Below are positions 12,428 through 61,490 of a stretch of 64,000 nt of DNA, piece after piece. Position 1 is the first letter of the stretch; each line of letters begins with the position of its first letter. Made by a program: the position numbers and the translations under genes. Origin of the DNA: a virus; the IMG/VR virus record IMGVR_UViG_3300048838_001106, positions 62,001 through 126,000 of that record; one strand, 5' to 3'. The notes below the pieces were generated by a model, which searched no databases, had not been told where the DNA came from, and saw nothing but the letters and a program-made list of their open reading frames with translations.

Positions 12428-12963
12428 AGGAATTGAGAGAAGAGGTCGGAACATACCTTGGAGACTTTCTAAGGACAGACATAGGTGCCGCAGAAAGACT
12501 TCACCTGTATGACGCAGCAAACACGCAGGCAATAGCTTTGATGGAGCTGACGGTGAAACACGCTGCGTATTTCGATGGTGTAGCGTGGGAGCAAGCAATT
12601 AGGCGCCGCGTCGAATCTCACAAGTACCATACCAGCGCACAGAGGCACTGGAGGCATGCAAATCTACGCGTTGACGACGAGGGGTGCTGGGAGCTTGTAG
12701 TATCTGAGAGGTGGACAACGTGCATCGCTCCAGAGTACCAGCGCAGCAATTTCGCGGACCTACTGTCACAGGGGGAGGGTGTAATGGTCACCCATCGATA
12801 CACGGAGAACACTGCTGTGTTCGCGTCCTTCGAGCTCCTGTGGAACACCATTCACTTTTTTGCGGAGAACTCACATGCTTCCATTCCCGCTGAACGATAT
12901 GTCAAAGCAGGACTATCTCATCTACATGCCGTACGTGACGGAAATAGTGTGCGACCTGAATGA
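12406..12963 (+). CDS. Hypothetical protein, possibly array-related
   Basis: A 185-residue protein from GTG 12406 behind GGAGGAGAGAAG. The N-terminal helix and central strands are like the array's, but it is longer and the C-terminal Arg helix is not evident. Function unknown. Confidence 0.72.
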   Translation: MRPIKTVEELREEVGTYLGDFLRTDIGAAERLHLYDAANTQAIALMELTVKHAAYFDGVAWEQAIRRRVESHKYHTSAQRHWRHANLRVDDEGCWELVVSERWTTCIAPEYQRSNFADLLSQGEGVMVTHRYTENTAVFASFELLWNTIHFFAENSHASIPAERYVKAGLSHLHAVRDGNSVRPE

Positions 12964-13507
12964 CGTCGCCAGCATGCTGTTCGGCAACGGCACTCAGTTG
13001 TGCCTACACTCGGTGTCTCAAGCTCACTGCCCGCAGTTTTTGCCGAAGCAGGAGCCTCCACTGACGCAACGCGAGCGTTGCTTAGAACGATGTGTCTCAA
13101 CGCTGGCGGTGCTGTACAGAGGCGTGCACCCAGGCTGGGCATACCCGAGGTTAGCACCTGCTCAGATAAACCAGTATCTCAGGCTGTACGACAGGCTGGA
13201 GAATGCGTACATCACGATGTCAGGGTTGGAGAACCTGCGAGCCCAGCCATGGCTCTACCGAATACGAATGCTGGGAGCAGCCAACCCTGACAAGCAACGC
13301 ATCGTGGTATCGGAAGCGGCGACTATCAAAATAGAGCCGTGGCCGCTTATGCAGACAGGGCTCGTCCTGACATTGCCAAGGATAGTGCGTCCCAGCACAC
13401 AATCGTTCGAGGTCGGAGGGACGATGCTACGACAGGTCCTGGACAATGGGTACAAGCAGTACCGCCGAGACGTGGCTACGCACGGCAATCATTGGGTAGA
13501 CAACTAG
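12875..13507 (+). CDS. Hypothetical protein
   Basis: A 210-residue protein starting at the ATG at 12875 behind CGGAGA, overlapping the previous gene by 89 bases. Cys near the centre (RERCLERCVSTLA). No family recognised. It is the last long gene before the gene-poor block. Confidence 0.7.
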   Translation: MLPFPLNDMSKQDYLIYMPYVTEIVCDLNDVASMLFGNGTQLCLHSVSQAHCPQFLPKQEPPLTQRERCLERCVSTLAVLYRGVHPGWAYPRLAPAQINQYLRLYDRLENAYITMSGLENLRAQPWLYRIRMLGAANPDKQRIVVSEAATIKIEPWPLMQTGLVLTLPRIVRPSTQSFEVGGTMLRQVLDNGYKQYRRDVATHGNHWVDN

Positions 13508-13544
13508 GGGCGGCCGGCGCTCGTTTCAAGGGGAGGTGTAGCCC

Positions 13545-13664
13545 GTGAGAATCCTGTTGCTGGAGGCGCGGAGTAATGCACGTGGTTTTACGTCGGCGAA
13601 CGGACGATTAGGAACTGTGCGGAGACACCGAATCGTGCCAGCGCTCAAGGTGAGAATAGTGTGA
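13545..13664 (+). CDS. Possible 39-residue basic peptide
   Basis: GTG 13545 lies eight bases after GGGGAGG and opens 39 codons, giving a basic peptide (NGRLGTVRRHRIVPALK). The ribosome site is the only support; it may be chance. Confidence 0.3.
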   Translation: MRILLLEARSNARGFTSANGRLGTVRRHRIVPALKVRIV

Positions 13665-13712
13665 CGAATAATTTTCGTATTGGTCAGCTGACCAATAATA
13701 CTATAAGTATGC

Positions 13713-13742
13713 TTGTATAATTTTGCTTATATTACAATGTAG
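13713..13742 (+). repeat. 30-bp element, copy A
   Basis: Begins TTGTATAATTTTGC and ends TTACAATGTAG; lies inside the left arm of the inverted repeat. Contains TATAAT. Confidence 0.85.
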
Positions 13743-14161
13743 TACGAAAATTCGAAGTCATTGAAATATAACGATTCATGTGTTTTTGAGTGCAGTATTG
13801 GCAGGTAAGCCGAAATACACATAGGGGTAGTAGTAGAGCGGAGAAGAGAGAAAATAGGGGTAGAGGAGGAGGAGTAATAGAAAGAAGAATATTCAATAAA
13901 TGTCATTTATTACATGTCAATTCTTCTTTACGTCTTCGAATTTTTCTTAGGTTAAAGAACCCCATCCTATCAAAACCCACCCTACATAAGATTTACATAC
14001 CTGAATTGATTTTGATTGTAAATACTGATCAGATGTATAGTGGTGTTGTTTTCAAAGTTCATTCTTCTCTCTATACGTGCCTATGTGTTTTTGGGCTCGG
14101 CGTGTTTTTGGGCTAAAAAAGTACGTGAATCGTTATATTTCAATGACTTCGAATTTTCGTA

Positions 14162-14191
14162 CTACATTGTAATATAAGCAAAATTATACAA
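14162..14191 (-). repeat. 30-bp element, copy A' (reverse)
   Basis: Reverse-complement copy of element A, carried by the right arm of the inverted repeat. Confidence 0.85.
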
Positions 14192-14456
14192 GCATACTTA
14201 TAGTATTATTGGTCAGCTGACCAAGATGCAAGTTTTTTCATAGCAAATCGGTGTGTTCGACACCGATTGCACTGTGAAATTTTCTCAAAAAAAGAGCCAA
14301 CAAAGTGTATTCCAGGGTGTATTCAAGGCTGTTTTGAGTCGAAAATGGCCTGTACGGAGCGTTAAACGGTGCTCCAGCGGTGCATCTGAAAGTGCTTGTA
14401 CGGCGCTAAACGACGCACTACGTGCAGGTAGACCATGGGCATAAGGTATTATTTTT

Positions 14457-14502: not shown

Positions 14503-14720
14503 AAAGAAAGACAACGACTTGCGATGCATTGGCTATGAGGACTGGCAGGCAATGCCTGGCGCTGAAGGCGGTGGTTTCGGTGAAATGTCGGTGTGCCGCT
14601 AAGTGCGCGTGTTTTGTGATTTAGTACAACACAACGGCGATGCGTTAAGCGATGGCCTGATTTGTCCGTCATGTGTCGGCGTATTTTGCCTGTTTTTCCA
14701 CAAGACGACATTGAAATCTT

Positions 14721-14767
14721 TTGTATAATTTTGCTTATATTACAATGTAGGTCGAAATTTCAGATGT
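14721..14767 (+). repeat. 30-bp element, copy B, with 17-bp extension
   Basis: The first 30 bases are identical to copy A. The full 47 bases match copy C with two differences; the shared extension reads GTCGAAATTTCAGATGT. Confidence 0.88.
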
Positions 14768-15006
14768 TGTTGTTTTCATTGTGGAAAAAAAATCACGTCG
14801 CTTCGTTGTATAAGCCTTTTTATAGTGACAGCACCAAAAACAGCCTCAAAAACAGGCGAGAAAATGGCGCCTTTTTGTACGGCGGTTTTAGCCCGAAACA
14901 GGCGGTTTTTGGTCGATTTGACCTGTTTTGACCGGCGACTCGTGGTCAGCAGTTTACAACTGTCGTCGGATTTGTGCCGCCATCGCTGGTGCGCTCGAGA
15001 GTTTAC

Positions 15007-15053
15007 TTATACAATTTTGCTTATATTACAATGTAGGTCGAAATTTCAGATGT
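15007..15053 (+). repeat. 30-bp element, copy C, with 17-bp extension
   Basis: Matches copy B over 47 bases with two differences, both within the first six bases. Lies about 150 bases before the next gene. Confidence 0.88.
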
Positions 15054-15139
15054 AGTTGAAACCTAACATGTATTATTTTTGGACGCCCTATTTAGTGGCA
15101 ATTTCGTGCCTTCAGACGCCGAGTTTGCCCCTGTATAGT

Positions 15140-15149
15140 GGTACAAGGA
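15140..15149 (+). promoter_or_regulatory. Weak promoter-like site upstream of 15204
   Basis: GGTACAAGGA resembles the GGTATAAGAA core of the promoters at 31120-33208 (8 of 10), and is followed by a stem CGCAC/GTGCG (15165-15169 with 15177-15181), the same order as at those promoters. The upstream box is not recognisable, so this is tentative. Confidence 0.35.
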
Positions 15150-15203: not shown

Positions 15204-15611
15204 ATGAGCAACGCTAGCAAAGCAGTTACGATGGAAGTCATCATTCCAATCCGTAATTCAGAGGACAACCTGGTCAATGACGCGCCCGACCTCGATGGCG
15301 ACCTGCCGCTTATGGATGGGTCGTTGTGGCGCGTTCGAATCCGCATCGAAGACGGTGCTGTCCTAAATTGGCCTATTGGCATGACTGCAAAGCTGCACGC
15401 CAAGGTAGTAGACTCCGGCGTGTACAGTCTGCTTGACAAAGACGATGAGGTGCTGAGCACTATCGACCGAGATTATGTTCCACAATGTTTGCAGATCAAC
15501 GATTATGGGTATGGCGATTACGTGTACCTGACCGTCGGCACTGATGGCGTCATCGACCGGTGGCCTTCCGTGGAGGAGATTCTTGAAGACTTCGAAGAGT
15601 GCAGCGACTAA
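15204..15611 (+). CDS. Conserved phage hypothetical protein
   Basis: A 135-residue protein from the ATG at 15204 behind CGGAGAAATC. The pattern of an acidic segment DLDGDLPLMDG, then WRVRIRIEDGAVLNWP and later YGDYVYLTVGTDGVIDRWP is one I have seen in conserved phage proteins of unknown function. It is the first gene after the gene-poor block, so it may head a transcription unit. Confidence 0.85.
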   Translation: MSNASKAVTMEVIIPIRNSEDNLVNDAPDLDGDLPLMDGSLWRVRIRIEDGAVLNWPIGMTAKLHAKVVDSGVYSLLDKDDEVLSTIDRDYVPQCLQINDYGYGDYVYLTVGTDGVIDRWPSVEEILEDFEECSD

Positions 15612-17189: not shown

Positions 17190-17258
17190 ATGACAAACGC
17201 AATGTCTCGAAACCTGTCTACGACACACCACTACGCAAAGCATGGTAAACCCACATGA
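17190..17258 (+). CDS. 22-codon coupling leader peptide
   Basis: ATG 17190 follows a strong ribosome site (AAAAGGAGTTTCA). The frame runs 22 codons (MTNAMSRNLSTTHHYAKHG...) and its stop overlaps the start of the 17255 gene as ATGA. The 17255 gene itself has no good ribosome site, so this short frame may exist to bring ribosomes to it. It is too short for any functional call. Confidence 0.5.
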   Translation: MTNAMSRNLSTTHHYAKHGKPT

Positions 17259-17692
17259 AAACATACTCCGTGCCTACCTGGGCAAGAGCAGACGTTCAGC
17301 CAGATAAGGACAAAGAGAAGCTGGTAGTGCTGCACACACGCTGTGTTATGCCGGGGGCACCCCGCATCAATCTCCTGGAAATCAACAACGCGTATATTCG
17401 TACAAAAGGCACGGTATGGGCTGAGAGCCACGGCGAACTCCCGCTCCGTGTATTGCATTGTGTTTCGGTGCCAGACGCCAATGGCCAGGACGTGTTTCTG
17501 TACGTCAAGGTACAGATCGCAGACGCCCTCGAACATGCAATAGTGCAAGGGCACGTCGGCATTGACGTAGCCTGTTTGTTTAACTTCCCCAAGGCGCACG
17601 CCCCCTTACCCATCAAACTGGTAGCCAGGGACGCATGGTTCCGTCGATTCGCGCGACACGTAGAGGCGAAAGACTGCGCTCCTCTACTTTAG
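17255..17692 (+). CDS. Hypothetical protein, family 2 member
   Basis: A 145-residue protein. GHVGIDVACLFNFPK aligns with RAAIDVLAMCRYPRW of the 16729 gene, marking a third tandem copy. Translation is probably coupled to the 22-codon leader. Confidence 0.78.
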   Translation: MKTYSVPTWARADVQPDKDKEKLVVLHTRCVMPGAPRINLLEINNAYIRTKGTVWAESHGELPLRVLHCVSVPDANGQDVFLYVKVQIADALEHAIVQGHVGIDVACLFNFPKAHAPLPIKLVARDAWFRRFARHVEAKDCAPLL

Positions 17693-17707
17693 CAACAGGA
17701 CTACAAC

Positions 17708-18139
17708 ATGACACCCGATAACAAGCGACTCACCGCAGAGTCTTTCCAGGACGCTCTCTTCGAGACATTCAAGGCTGCGGGTTACGAGCCAAAGAAGTAC
17801 GTGCGCAAAGAGCGACGTCCCATTACACGGCTCAAAGAGAGGCCGCCGTTGTGGATTATCGAAGAGCTGGGCCTCATCCTTGAGATATCCCATGACAGAT
17901 ATCACACGCCTCTCCCAGTAGTGCGTGTCTCAAGGAAGGACACGGACATAGCGATGGTCTGCACCCCTATTCAGAGCCTTGAAGAAGCAGACAATATGGT
18001 CAAGGTCTGCATCCTTGAACATGTGGCAGACAAGCAAAGAGAGTACGAAGCGGCGCTGCGCCAGGGCGTAGATGCCATTACGAAACTGAAACAGCGCGGA
18101 GGAGCAACAGATGAGCGAAAGACAATACCTGGTGCCTAA
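17708..18139 (+). CDS. Hypothetical protein
   Basis: A 143-residue basic protein with a helical C-terminus (ADKQREYEAALRQGVDAI). Start behind CAGGA. No family recognised. Confidence 0.75.
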   Translation: MTPDNKRLTAESFQDALFETFKAAGYEPKKYVRKERRPITRLKERPPLWIIEELGLILEISHDRYHTPLPVVRVSRKDTDIAMVCTPIQSLEEADNMVKVCILEHVADKQREYEAALRQGVDAITKLKQRGGATDERKTIPGA

Positions 18140-22934: not shown

Positions 22935-23461
22935 CACTTGTGGATGAAACGTTCGATAAAGACGTCTCGTTACATGAGATGACGATCGAGCAGGACAGCG
23001 GCGTCTATAGATGCATTTCGTTTAAGAACCCTAGCTCAATCAATTATCACTTTCGCCTGACCACATGGCCGGGCCATCTGGCTATCTCAGGCGACATGGG
23101 CGATTTCATGTTCTGCAGGCTGCAGGACATGTTTGAGTTTTTTCGAGGACCACTGTCCGTGGGATACTGGAAAGAGAAGTGCGTGGCCGGCGAAACCGAA
23201 GAATTTGACGCGCACAGCTGGGGCGACTTTTTGTCGGACTTGCTAGACCAGGAGTACATCACAAAGGAGCAGAAAGAAGAGCTTTCCGGTCTGGAGCCAG
23301 ACAACCCATACAGCCTGGTCGAAGCGCTTGACCAGGCGGGCGTGGCAGATGCCTGGGAGTATGGCGGAGCACTCGACGCCTACACACATCAGTTTTTGTG
23401 GTGCCTCAGAGCAATCCAGTGGGGCATCGCGAAGTACGACGCCAGCAAGGAGCTGTCATGA
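22931..23461 (+). CDS. Conserved phage protein with PGHLAISGDMG motif
   Basis: A 176-residue protein. ATG 22931 overlaps the preceding stop as ATGA; longer in-frame starts exist. Residues about 45-75 contain WPGHLAISGDMGDFMF and DMFEFFR, the signature of a widespread phage protein family (PGHLxxxGDMGxxxF ... DMFxFF) with no known function. The C-terminal half is acidic. Confidence 0.85.
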   Translation: MTLVDETFDKDVSLHEMTIEQDSGVYRCISFKNPSSINYHFRLTTWPGHLAISGDMGDFMFCRLQDMFEFFRGPLSVGYWKEKCVAGETEEFDAHSWGDFLSDLLDQEYITKEQKEELSGLEPDNPYSLVEALDQAGVADAWEYGGALDAYTHQFLWCLRAIQWGIAKYDASKELS

Positions 23462-30055: not shown

Positions 30056-30360
30056 CTCAAGACGACTACTGGGACATCACAACTACACAGGCTGCGGGCA
30101 TTCCATTGTGGAAAGTCGGCAAACGAACAACAATCAAAACAACTCACCACAAAGAGGACACCGAAATCATGGCAAACCCAGACAAAGTCTACTTTTTGGC
30201 AAAAAAAGACGAGCTCAGACAGTTTCGTGAACAATGTGAGCACGTCGCGAAGTCAATGCACGCGCACAGCTCTTTTCATCTGCACAAAGATGTCTTGAAC
30301 GACTATGAACGCCTTCTGTTGGAAGAAGAGGAGCGCCGTGACACAAGATCCGAGACTTGA
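30052..30360 (+). CDS. Hypothetical protein
   Basis: A 102-residue protein, ATGA-coupled to the MazG-like gene. An internal start (ATG 30169) would give a 63-residue helical protein; I keep the longer form. No motif recognised. Confidence 0.65.
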   Translation: MTQDDYWDITTTQAAGIPLWKVGKRTTIKTTHHKEDTEIMANPDKVYFLAKKDELRQFREQCEHVAKSMHAHSSFHLHKDVLNDYERLLLEEEERRDTRSET

Positions 30361-30868
30361 AGACCTCCGACGGCAGCTAAAAGCCGGATTATTCACGCGA
30401 GACATTGCAAAACTATGGAGGTGCTCACAAGCGACTGTCAATTACTGGATTCGCAAAGATCCAGAGCTTGTTCGGCTCAGGGACCGCACGTTTCCGGCGA
30501 GAAAACGCACCACACGCAAAGTAAGCGACTTTATGTTGCAGAAATACATAGAAGATGGCTGGACACACAAGCGCATAGCTGCGTTTACAGGCATGCACCT
30601 GTCCACGATACAGCGACGCATGAAAAAGGCACCACACCTTGAAATCTTGTACGAAGAAACCGCGCATCTTCGAATAAACCGAGCAAAACTTCGAAAAAGC
30701 GCGAGAGAACAGCATGTACCAGAAATTGCCAGGCTCACGTGTCAAGGCTACACCTTAAAAGACATTGCGAAGATGCGTGGCCTCACCAAAAGCAAAGTAA
30801 CTCACATAAAAAGAGAATTCAGAGAATTGTTTCTGCATTACATGGAGACATTCAATGGCCAGACATGA
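30338..30868 (+). CDS. Triple helix-turn-helix DNA-binding protein
   Basis: A 176-residue basic protein from GTG 30338 behind GAGGAGCGCC. Three repeats of about 50-60 residues each hold a resolvase/homeo-like HTH: FTRDIAKLWRCSQATVNYW, THKRIAAFTGMHLSTIQRR, and TLKDIAKMRGLTKSKVTHIK. Three HTH units in tandem with nothing else suggest a sequence-specific regulator or a terminator/packaging DNA-binding protein. It immediately precedes the block of genes with their own promoters. Confidence 0.82.
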   Translation: MTQDPRLEDLRRQLKAGLFTRDIAKLWRCSQATVNYWIRKDPELVRLRDRTFPARKRTTRKVSDFMLQKYIEDGWTHKRIAAFTGMHLSTIQRRMKKAPHLEILYEETAHLRINRAKLRKSAREQHVPEIARLTCQGYTLKDIAKMRGLTKSKVTHIKREFRELFLHYMETFNGQT

Positions 30869-60026: not shown

Positions 60027-61490
60027 TCAACCTCCGATCTTCACGAACGTAGACTTTGCCGCAGAAAGTGATCCTCGACTCAGAGCGTATGGCGGCAGAA
60101 ATGGTGGAGCAGTAGGTATGATTCCAAGACCTGGATGAAAATGAACGTGGGTGTCTATCATCGCTCCAAATATGTCCATGAATATACTAAGTGTTTCGAA
60201 CAGCACAGCACTGAATGGGCCAACACCGGACACCCCACCGAGTTTAACGTTGCCAGCTACTGTAGAGTTGAGTTCAATCTTCCCTAATACCGACGAGATA
60301 GCTATGTCTCCTGTCAGGGTATCTACCGTGAAACCACTATGACGCACTTGTGCGTCTACTCCAGGCTCCCCAATCTTAAAGGCGACATCTCCGTTTCCTA
60401 CGGTAAACAGCAATGCCGGGTCTGCTGATGTGACATCCCCGGTAGCTGTTACCAAGGTGTTTCTGAAAGATGACAGCAACAAGTCGTGCGCGGCCGCCAG
60501 ACCAATGTCGTTGCTAGATCGAACACGGTGACTACCACTCGTGTCGTGGTCAACATTTTTGCCTGTTATGACAGTGCGGCTGCCGCCTACCACGTCGGTC
60601 TTGTCTTGCTCTGTACTTTCGTATCTGCTGCCTCCAGTAGCGTCCCAGGAGTCTCCTTCCACGGCAGACGTCCTTTGAGCCATCTCAGTGTCTACACGGC
60701 CATCGGGGTCAACATGGATGCGATATAGGTTTCGGCCACTCCCATCCGTCACGCGGAAGTCCACGAGCTCACCATCGTCTCCAAGTTCGCACCTAATGCG
60801 AAAATTTTCCTGGTCTGGGTTGGACTCTACATCACAGTCTGCGCCCGCCCGCAGTATGATAGATGTTTTGCCGTCTGACGTTTTGAAGTCTAATGACCCT
60901 GCCCCTGTGTAGATGCTAAGATTCTGCCCAATAAGACGCAGCATGTTCTTAGCCTGGGTTGCTATTATCTGCGCAAGGTCGGCAGCTTTCATAACAACGC
61001 TTCCGCCTTCCAGGACACCTAGCACATTTCCTAGATCCCCCATTTTCAGCCAGTCGCCGCTGACCACGTCTTTTGGCTTGTCGCCGCGCAGGTCGTTGTC
61101 ACCTCTTCCAGTGTAAGCAGTGTCATTGCCACCCACTGCTGCTACAGGAGTAACCGCTATTGGAGCGCGACTCTTTGCCTGGTTTTTTTGTGAACCAGGC
61201 TGCGCGTCAGGAGTGATTGGCAACAACATAGGAGTGCCGAGCTCGTACATCACGGTGTATTTGTCCCCGCGCTTTGGTACCAAAATCTCCCCAGAGTTGT
61301 TCGGCCACGGCACACCTGCCAGGAATTTGCCCTTCTCTGTAAAGACGTCGCAGCAGTACGTGTCTGGGTACACCTCATGGATGTACGCCTTTTCCCATCG
61401 CTGACGTGAAGAAGCGAATGCCGCGCCTTTCATGGCTGCCAGAGCGGCATTCGAGGCAGGATTTGGATTTGGATTGTAAGGATTAAACAT
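60027..61490 (-). CDS. Baseplate spike protein, gpV/gp5-like
   Basis: A 487-residue protein from ATG 61490 behind CAGGAGG. Residues 30-90 (YIHEVYPDTYCCDVFTEKGK, then VPKRGDKYTVMYELGTPML) fit the OB-fold of phage spike proteins. The later part is rich in short beta repeats (GKTSIILRAGADCDVES; GNVKLGGVSGVG) like the beta-helical needle, and HVHFHPGLG lies near the end. It pierces the outer membrane in contractile tails. Confidence 0.82.
   Translation of the reverse strand: MFNPYNPNPNPASNAALAAMKGAAFASSRQRWEKAYIHEVYPDTYCCDVFTEKGKFLAGVPWPNNSGEILVPKRGDKYTVMYELGTPMLLPITPDAQPGSQKNQAKSRAPIAVTPVAAVGGNDTAYTGRGDNDLRGDKPKDVVSGDWLKMGDLGNVLGVLEGGSVVMKAADLAQIIATQAKNMLRLIGQNLSIYTGAGSLDFKTSDGKTSIILRAGADCDVESNPDQENFRIRCELGDDGELVDFRVTDGSGRNLYRIHVDPDGRVDTEMAQRTSAVEGDSWDATGGSRYESTEQDKTDVVGGSRTVITGKNVDHDTSGSHRVRSSNDIGLAAAHDLLLSSFRNTLVTATGDVTSADPALLFTVGNGDVAFKIGEPGVDAQVRHSGFTVDTLTGDIAISSVLGKIELNSTVAGNVKLGGVSGVGPFSAVLFETLSIFMDIFGAMIDTHVHFHPGLGIIPTAPPFLPPYALSRGSLSAAKSTFVKIGG

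What the first reader, a model, noticed from the sequence alone, without database searches (positions are those of the whole stretch)
13680..14224. 99-bp perfect inverted repeat with palindromic ends in a gene-poor block
Perfect identity of two 99-base arms 347 bases apart cannot be old neutral sequence; it is either recent or maintained by recombination or function. Outer ends are the palindrome TTGGTCAGCTGACCAA. No transposase and no clear target duplication were seen. Options: replication origin or resolution site, a non-autonomous mobile element, or a large RNA or cruciform structure.
Basis: seen in the sequence. Interest (0 to 1): 0.72.

Follow-up and report, generated by a model that had tools for sequence, protein, structure and literature searches.

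The report
Inverted-repeat control region in a phage
A newly seen bacterial virus carries, in its longest and most AT-rich stretch without genes, a perfect 99-letter mirror-image repeat built around a short motif that occurs four times there and nowhere else in its genome; this looks like a place where DNA copying or gene reading starts, not like a jumping element or an assembly mistake.

Summary
Two perfect 99-base arms (13680-13778 / 14126-14224) lie 347 bases apart; they are the only inverted repeat of this size in the 156-kb phage record. All four copies lie in one non-coding gap of about 1.6 kb that holds the genome's most AT-rich windows and its most purine-biased 60-base window. Third-codon GC skew of the surrounding one-directional genes changes sign at this gap. 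The phage belongs to an unnamed family with a fused beta-beta' RNA polymerase (named relative: Salmonella phage Arash, where that enzyme is in the virion). No homologous DNA was found; a mobile element or invertible switch is not supported (single copy, no target duplication, no recombinase found). Best reading: a cis-acting initiation region, replication origin and/or early-promoter array, in which one repeated site was duplicated head-to-head and kept identical. Function is inferred, not shown. In passing: Arash has five evenly spaced, co-oriented cassettes with inverted arms.

The parts
13680..13778 (+). left arm of the perfect 99-base inverted repeat
14126..14224 (-). right arm of the perfect 99-base inverted repeat
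13678..13697 (.). 20-base perfect palindrome TATTGGTCAGCTGACCAATA at the left outer end
14209..14224 (.). 16-base palindrome TTGGTCAGCTGACCAA at the right outer end
13713..13764 (+). motif copy 1 (in left arm), reading into the loop
14140..14191 (-). motif copy 2 (in right arm), reading into the loop, convergent with copy 1
14721..14772 (+). motif copy 3, outside the inverted repeat
15007..15058 (+). motif copy 4, outside the inverted repeat
13829..13888 (+). 88% purine, G-rich tract in the loop; most purine-asymmetric 60-base window of the record
13808..13852 (+). left side of the imperfect inner stem (pairs with about 14058-14097)
14058..14097 (-). right side of the imperfect inner stem
14246..14268 (.). 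9-base-pair hairpin AATCGGTGT-GTTCG-ACACCGATT just outside the right arm
   Evidence: sequence
14693..14703 (+). TTTTTCCACAA, DnaA-box-like, left of motif copy 3
   Evidence: only two such 11-mers in the record
14779..14789 (-). inverted partner TTGTGGAAAAA, right of motif copy 3
15140..15147 (+). GGTACAAG, variant of the intergenic GGTATAAG promoter-like motif
12860..13507 (+). flanking gene, 215 aa, no relatives found
15204..15611 (+). first gene downstream, 135 aa (ATG with GGAGAA ribosome-binding site); weak LtfC-like match

Best explanation
The 13.68-15.06 kb gap is a cis-acting initiation region of this phage, most likely a replication origin that doubles as a transcription start region. 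A phage-coded protein (an initiator, or the family's own RNA polymerase) recognises the asymmetric site AATTTTGCTTATATTACAATGTAG...CGAAAnTTC, present in four copies. Two copies face each other inside the perfect inverted repeat; two follow in tandem on the + strand. Initiation at copy 1 would run into the genome's most AT-rich and purine-biased stretch, where the helix opens easily and a G-rich transcript could stay hybridised as a primer, as at T4 oriF/oriG (promoter plus unwinding element). The 99-base arms arose by head-to-head duplication of one site with its palindromic border, and are kept identical by template switching or conversion between the arms. Shown: anatomy, copy number, uniqueness, base composition, skew change, no homologues found. 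Inferred: protein recognition, start of replication or transcription, homogenisation.
For: Four motif copies all in this gap and none elsewhere in 156 kb. 400-base GC minimum 0.328 against a mean of 0.528, sd 0.031; the six most AT-rich 100-base windows of the record are all here, and the most purine-biased 60-base window is in the loop. Largest non-coding gap, almost without coding signal. Third-codon GC skew of the surrounding + strand genes is +0.065 left and -0.067 right, with the best change point exactly at this gap (permutation p 0.0008). An inverted pair of TTTTTCCACAA flanks copy 3. The phage has its own DNA polymerase, primase and helicase. Literature: repeats plus AT-rich DNA in non-coding regions are known origin anatomy (PMC7145576); promoter plus unwinding element at T4 origins (PMC4412123).
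Against: No coverage, transcript or binding data. The skew change has the sign opposite to a bidirectional origin with a G-rich leading strand, and the corrected skew has other turning points (record 100 and 137 kb), so it may mark a gene-module border. No initiator gene identified. Flanking genes are orphans, so no relative can confirm the position. Relatives share another repeated-hairpin gap beside DNA polymerase and terminase that could be the origin or packaging site. The octamer TATATTAC is not enriched in relatives. The motif differs from the more general GGTATAAG intergenic motif.
Confidence: 0.4

Rival explanations
1. Early transcription control region only: the motif is an early promoter of the phage's virion RNA polymerase; copies 3 and 4 drive the rightward gene block and the two arm copies fire convergently into the loop.
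For: The phage encodes fused beta-beta'N (1610 aa), beta'C (975 aa) and a sigma-like protein; in relative Arash their homologues are in the virion, RNAP beta being the protein with most spectra (PMC10585845). The core contains TATATTAC, the octamer listed as the phiKZ promoter (PMC7058600), and Arash has TATATTAC in five copies of a repeated cassette. Early promoters differ between phages but hold about 10 AT-rich conserved bases (PMC7598289).
Against: Only one locus in the genome has the motif, whereas jumbo-phage early promoters precede many operons; conservation extends well beyond a -10 element; TATATTAC is absent or at control level in 30 relatives; another motif, GGTATAAG, precedes several genes; two Arash cassettes do not face a plausible gene.
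Confidence: 0.25
2. Inverted duplication without function, or a non-autonomous mobile element (MITE-like) that inserted once.
For: Sharp outer borders at a palindrome and long terminal inverted repeats resemble an element end; base composition differs from the rest of the genome.
Against: No target duplication, no second copy in the record, none in phages, plasmids or relatives by blastn; the palindrome's one IMG/VR hit lies in an unrelated phage and is chance-like. The internal motif also occurs outside the arms, so the unit is the motif, not the element.
Confidence: 0.15
3. A long structured RNA or double-stranded RNA: transcription through the segment gives a hairpin of about 99 perfect plus 40-80 imperfect pairs.
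For: The inner 347 bases fold better than shuffles on both strands (z -3.0 and -2.5) and continue the stem; four relatives have shorter intergenic inverted repeats in their accessory arcs and none was found inside genes.
Against: No Rfam match; no homologues, hence no covariation test; the inner fold is partly explained by purine-rich and pyrimidine-rich halves; perfect pairing with no compensating changes is uninformative.
Confidence: 0.12
4. Recombinational switch: the 347-base loop inverts between the arms.
For: Perfect arms of 99 bases can recombine by general recombination (established knowledge); palindromic ends resemble recombinase sites (inference).
Against: No tyrosine or serine recombinase detected; both arms carry the same inward motif, so inversion would not switch flanking genes; no coding sequence in the loop.
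Confidence: 0.04
5. Assembly artefact.
For: The record is a metagenome assembly and its ends lie in a 42-base tandem array.
Against: Both arms have different unique flanks; the arms are shorter than a common read; diverged copies of the motif outside the arms show that the sequence belongs to this genome.
Confidence: 0.04

Closest known systems
Phage T4 origins oriF/oriG (promoter plus DNA unwinding element, R-loop primed)
   Same: Promoter-like site followed by AT-rich DNA whose transcript would be G-rich, in a phage with its own replication proteins
   Different: No long inverted repeat or four-copy motif is described for T4 oriF/oriG in the source read; here neither the promoter nor the R-loop is shown
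Iteron-type origins, e.g. the PLE satellite origin bound by RepA (PMC7145576)
   Same: Non-coding region with repeated sites
   Different: Here repeats are about 24-52 bases, four copies in mixed orientation, and no initiator is identified; PLE iterons are about 30 bases with binding shown
phiKZ-type early promoters (TATATTAC) of virion RNA polymerase
   Same: Octamer present in the invariant core of all four copies; the phage family has a virion RNA polymerase
   Different: One locus only, longer conserved block, octamer not enriched in the family
Five dispersed intergenic cassettes with inverted arms of Salmonella phage Arash
   Same: AT-rich intergenic cassette with inverted arms and TATATTAC in a distant relative
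   Different: Unrelated sequence, arms about 33 bases, five copies spread evenly round the genome

Membership tests
R-loop/promoter-type phage replication origin | AT-rich easily unwound segment in a non-coding region | tested here: met
R-loop/promoter-type phage replication origin | Active promoter directly upstream of the unwinding element | not testable with these tools
   motif copy 1 lies there, but promoter activity needs RNA data
R-loop/promoter-type phage replication origin | Replication starts there (coverage peak, skew switch) | tested here: inconclusive
   third-codon GC skew changes at the gap but with sign opposite to the usual; no reads available
Iteron origin | Several copies of one site clustered at one locus only | tested here: met
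   four copies, none elsewhere
Iteron origin | Cognate initiator encoded nearby | tested here: inconclusive
   no replication initiator recognised among neighbouring proteins in Pfam or PHROGs, but nearly all neighbours are orphans
phiKZ-type virion RNA polymerase early promoter | Conserved AT-rich -10 element upstream of many early operons | tested here: not met
   motif at a single locus
phiKZ-type virion RNA polymerase early promoter | Phage encodes a virion multisubunit RNA polymerase | tested here: met
   homologues by sequence; virion location known only in relative Arash
MITE / non-autonomous transposon | Target site duplication | tested here: not met
   flanks
MITE / non-autonomous transposon | Multiple copies or a related autonomous element | tested here: not met
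Invertible DNA segment | Site-specific recombinase in the genome | tested here: not met
   PF00589 and PF00239 not found

The most novel reading that the evidence does not exclude
Phages with a fused, virion-type RNA polymerase use lineage-specific intergenic cassettes with inverted arms, fast-changing in sequence but alike in build, as combined start sites for polymerase loading and genome replication; this phage has one giant cassette with four sites nearby, Arash has five evenly spaced ones.
Probability: 0.1. Interest if true: 0.7.

Novelty: new variant of a known kind. Interest (0 to 1): 0.4.

Why it matters
Origins and early promoters of phages with virion multisubunit RNA polymerases outside the phiKZ and AR9 groups are unmapped as far as I know. 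If this region is such a start site, it gives a short, testable target sequence for the family's polymerase or initiator, and an example of a perfect inverted repeat preserved in a phage genome.

Tried and rejected
Family-wide TATATTAC promoter: rejected, 30 relatives show no excess over the reversed control. Mobile element: no copies. IMG/VR 16-mer and GTDB 17-mer hits are single and chance-like. The palindrome's only IMG/VR hit is in an unrelated 175-kb phage. Rfam gave nothing. Synteny of the flanks: no relatives of either flanking gene. sigma-70 promoter scan: no more sites than shuffles.

Full report
What is there. The window is bases 62001-126000 of a 156,269-base IMG/VR phage record. 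The two arms 13680-13778 and 14126-14224 are exact reverse complements; the record has no other inverted repeat of comparable size. The arms start with the palindrome TTGGTCAGCTGACCAA (20 bases long on the left). Identity is abrupt at the outer side; on the inner side it is followed by a weak, gapped continuation for about 70 bases (score reached by 0.6% of shuffles), and the inner 347 bases fold somewhat better than shuffles on both strands.

A motif inside the arms recurs at 14721 and 15007 on the + strand. Aligned, the three distinct copies share 24 contiguous invariant bases, AATTTTGCTTATATTACAATGTAG, then CGAAAnTTC, with looser similarity further on. No other place in the record matches this motif beyond shuffle level. 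The unit is therefore the motif; the inverted repeat is two copies head to head with borders.

Setting. The four copies sit in the gap between 13507 and 15204, inside a block of small + strand genes. The gap holds the lowest GC of the record (0.328 in 400 bases; mean 0.528, sd 0.031), all six of the most AT-rich 100-base windows, and the most purine-biased 60-base window (13829-13888). The loop is not coding. Within the one-directional block, GC skew at third codon positions is +0.065 to the left and -0.067 to the right, and the best change point lies exactly at this gap (permutation p 0.0008 for a change point of this strength). The sign is opposite to what a bidirectional origin with a G-rich leading strand would give, and other turning points exist, so this may equally mark a border between gene modules.

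The phage. It encodes a DNA polymerase, primase and Dda-like helicase, a terminase and a 1610-aa protein with RNA polymerase beta and N-terminal beta' domains and a GNAT-like insertion, a 975-aa protein with a C-terminal beta' domain and a 632-aa protein with a weak sigma region 3 match. Named relatives by the polymerase are Salmonella phage Arash and Vibrio phages D69, D148 and D181 (35-37% identity); 132 IMG/VR stretches encode relatives, 80 kept, the nearest 65% identical. In Arash the polymerase and sigma homologues are in the virion, the beta subunit with the most spectra of all proteins (PMC10585845). The core genes are conserved, but the whole block round the finding has no homologue in the ten relatives compared. 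Position and sequence of the finding thus cannot be tested by synteny.

Interpretation. Clustered asymmetric sites, extreme AT content, purine bias and a large non-coding gap are the anatomy of an initiation region. I favour an origin with promoter-like sites, comparable in logic to T4 oriF/oriG, where a transcript from a promoter stays paired in an unwinding element (PMC4412123), or to iteron origins such as that of the PLE satellite (PMC7145576). A pure promoter array for the virion polymerase is the main rival: the invariant core holds TATATTAC, listed for phiKZ (PMC7058600), and a distant relative, Arash, has this octamer in a repeated intergenic cassette. However, 30 relatives show no excess of it, the motif occurs at a single locus, and a different motif, GGTATAAG, is intergenic in 7 of 7 cases and in 5 of them lies 15-50 bases before a gene.

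Why the arms are identical. Perfect arms with abrupt ends and a decayed inner stem suggest recent duplication or homogenisation by template switching or conversion between arms. This is inference from one genome.

What it is not, as far as tested. There is no target duplication, no second copy, no meaningful blastn match in phages, plasmids or 34 relatives, no tyrosine or serine recombinase and no Rfam match. Four relatives have shorter intergenic inverted repeats of unrelated sequence in their accessory arcs (26-42-base arms, one more with 24; none inside called genes), which suggests, weakly, that such elements recur in the family.

Limits. No reads, transcripts or cultured host are available; all function is inferred. 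The gene calls are from a simple codon-score caller written here, which leaves out some overlapping small ORFs. Several statistics were chosen after looking at the region and should be read as descriptive.

Noticed in passing
L020-L023 (Salmonella phage Arash OQ632216.1; about 26.7, 66.4, 100.2, 138.5, 173.3 kb): Five near-identical, co-oriented intergenic cassettes of about 105-160 bases bounded by inverted arms of about 33 bases (CAAACGTTGTAACC...CCCACCTCAAGA), spaced 33.8-39.7 kb round the 180.8-kb map if taken as circular; chance of five random sites being this even is about 2e-5. The words promoter and intergenic do not occur in the Arash paper.
   Followed up: partly
record 17218-17823 (L012); G001 60806-61329 (L143); G004 101283-102235 (L200): The gap between the DNA polymerase operon and the terminase gene carries 3-4 copies of a short perfect hairpin whose sequence differs in each phage (CAGCGCTACGCTG; GGCGATGTTTCGTCGCC; GTCTCCrCTACGGAGAC). 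A candidate packaging site, origin or RNA processing site.
   Followed up: partly
window 31120, 32258, 32668, 33199, 57333 and record 20316, 155863: GGTATAAG occurs 7 times, always between genes in these calls and in 5 cases 15-50 bases before a gene start; a candidate phage promoter motif.
   Followed up: partly
L019:10411-15243 (record 150411-155243): Fused beta-beta' RNA polymerase of 1610 aa with a GNAT acetyltransferase-like domain inserted in the beta part (residues about 631-711).
   Followed up: no
window 30305-30868: 187-aa protein with three helix-turn-helix stretches (HTH_23, sigma region 4-like).
   Followed up: no
record 15-113 and 156024-156269: Both contig ends lie in the same 42-base tandem array, so the record is probably near complete and broken in a repeat.
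   Followed up: no
G007 13399-13586 (L176), G009 165108-165293 (L193), G008 23122-23228 (L159), G006 100507-100702 (L171): Shorter intergenic inverted repeats (26-42-base arms, loops 55-144) in accessory arcs of relatives; the arm differences in G007 are wobble-compatible in RNA.
   Followed up: partly
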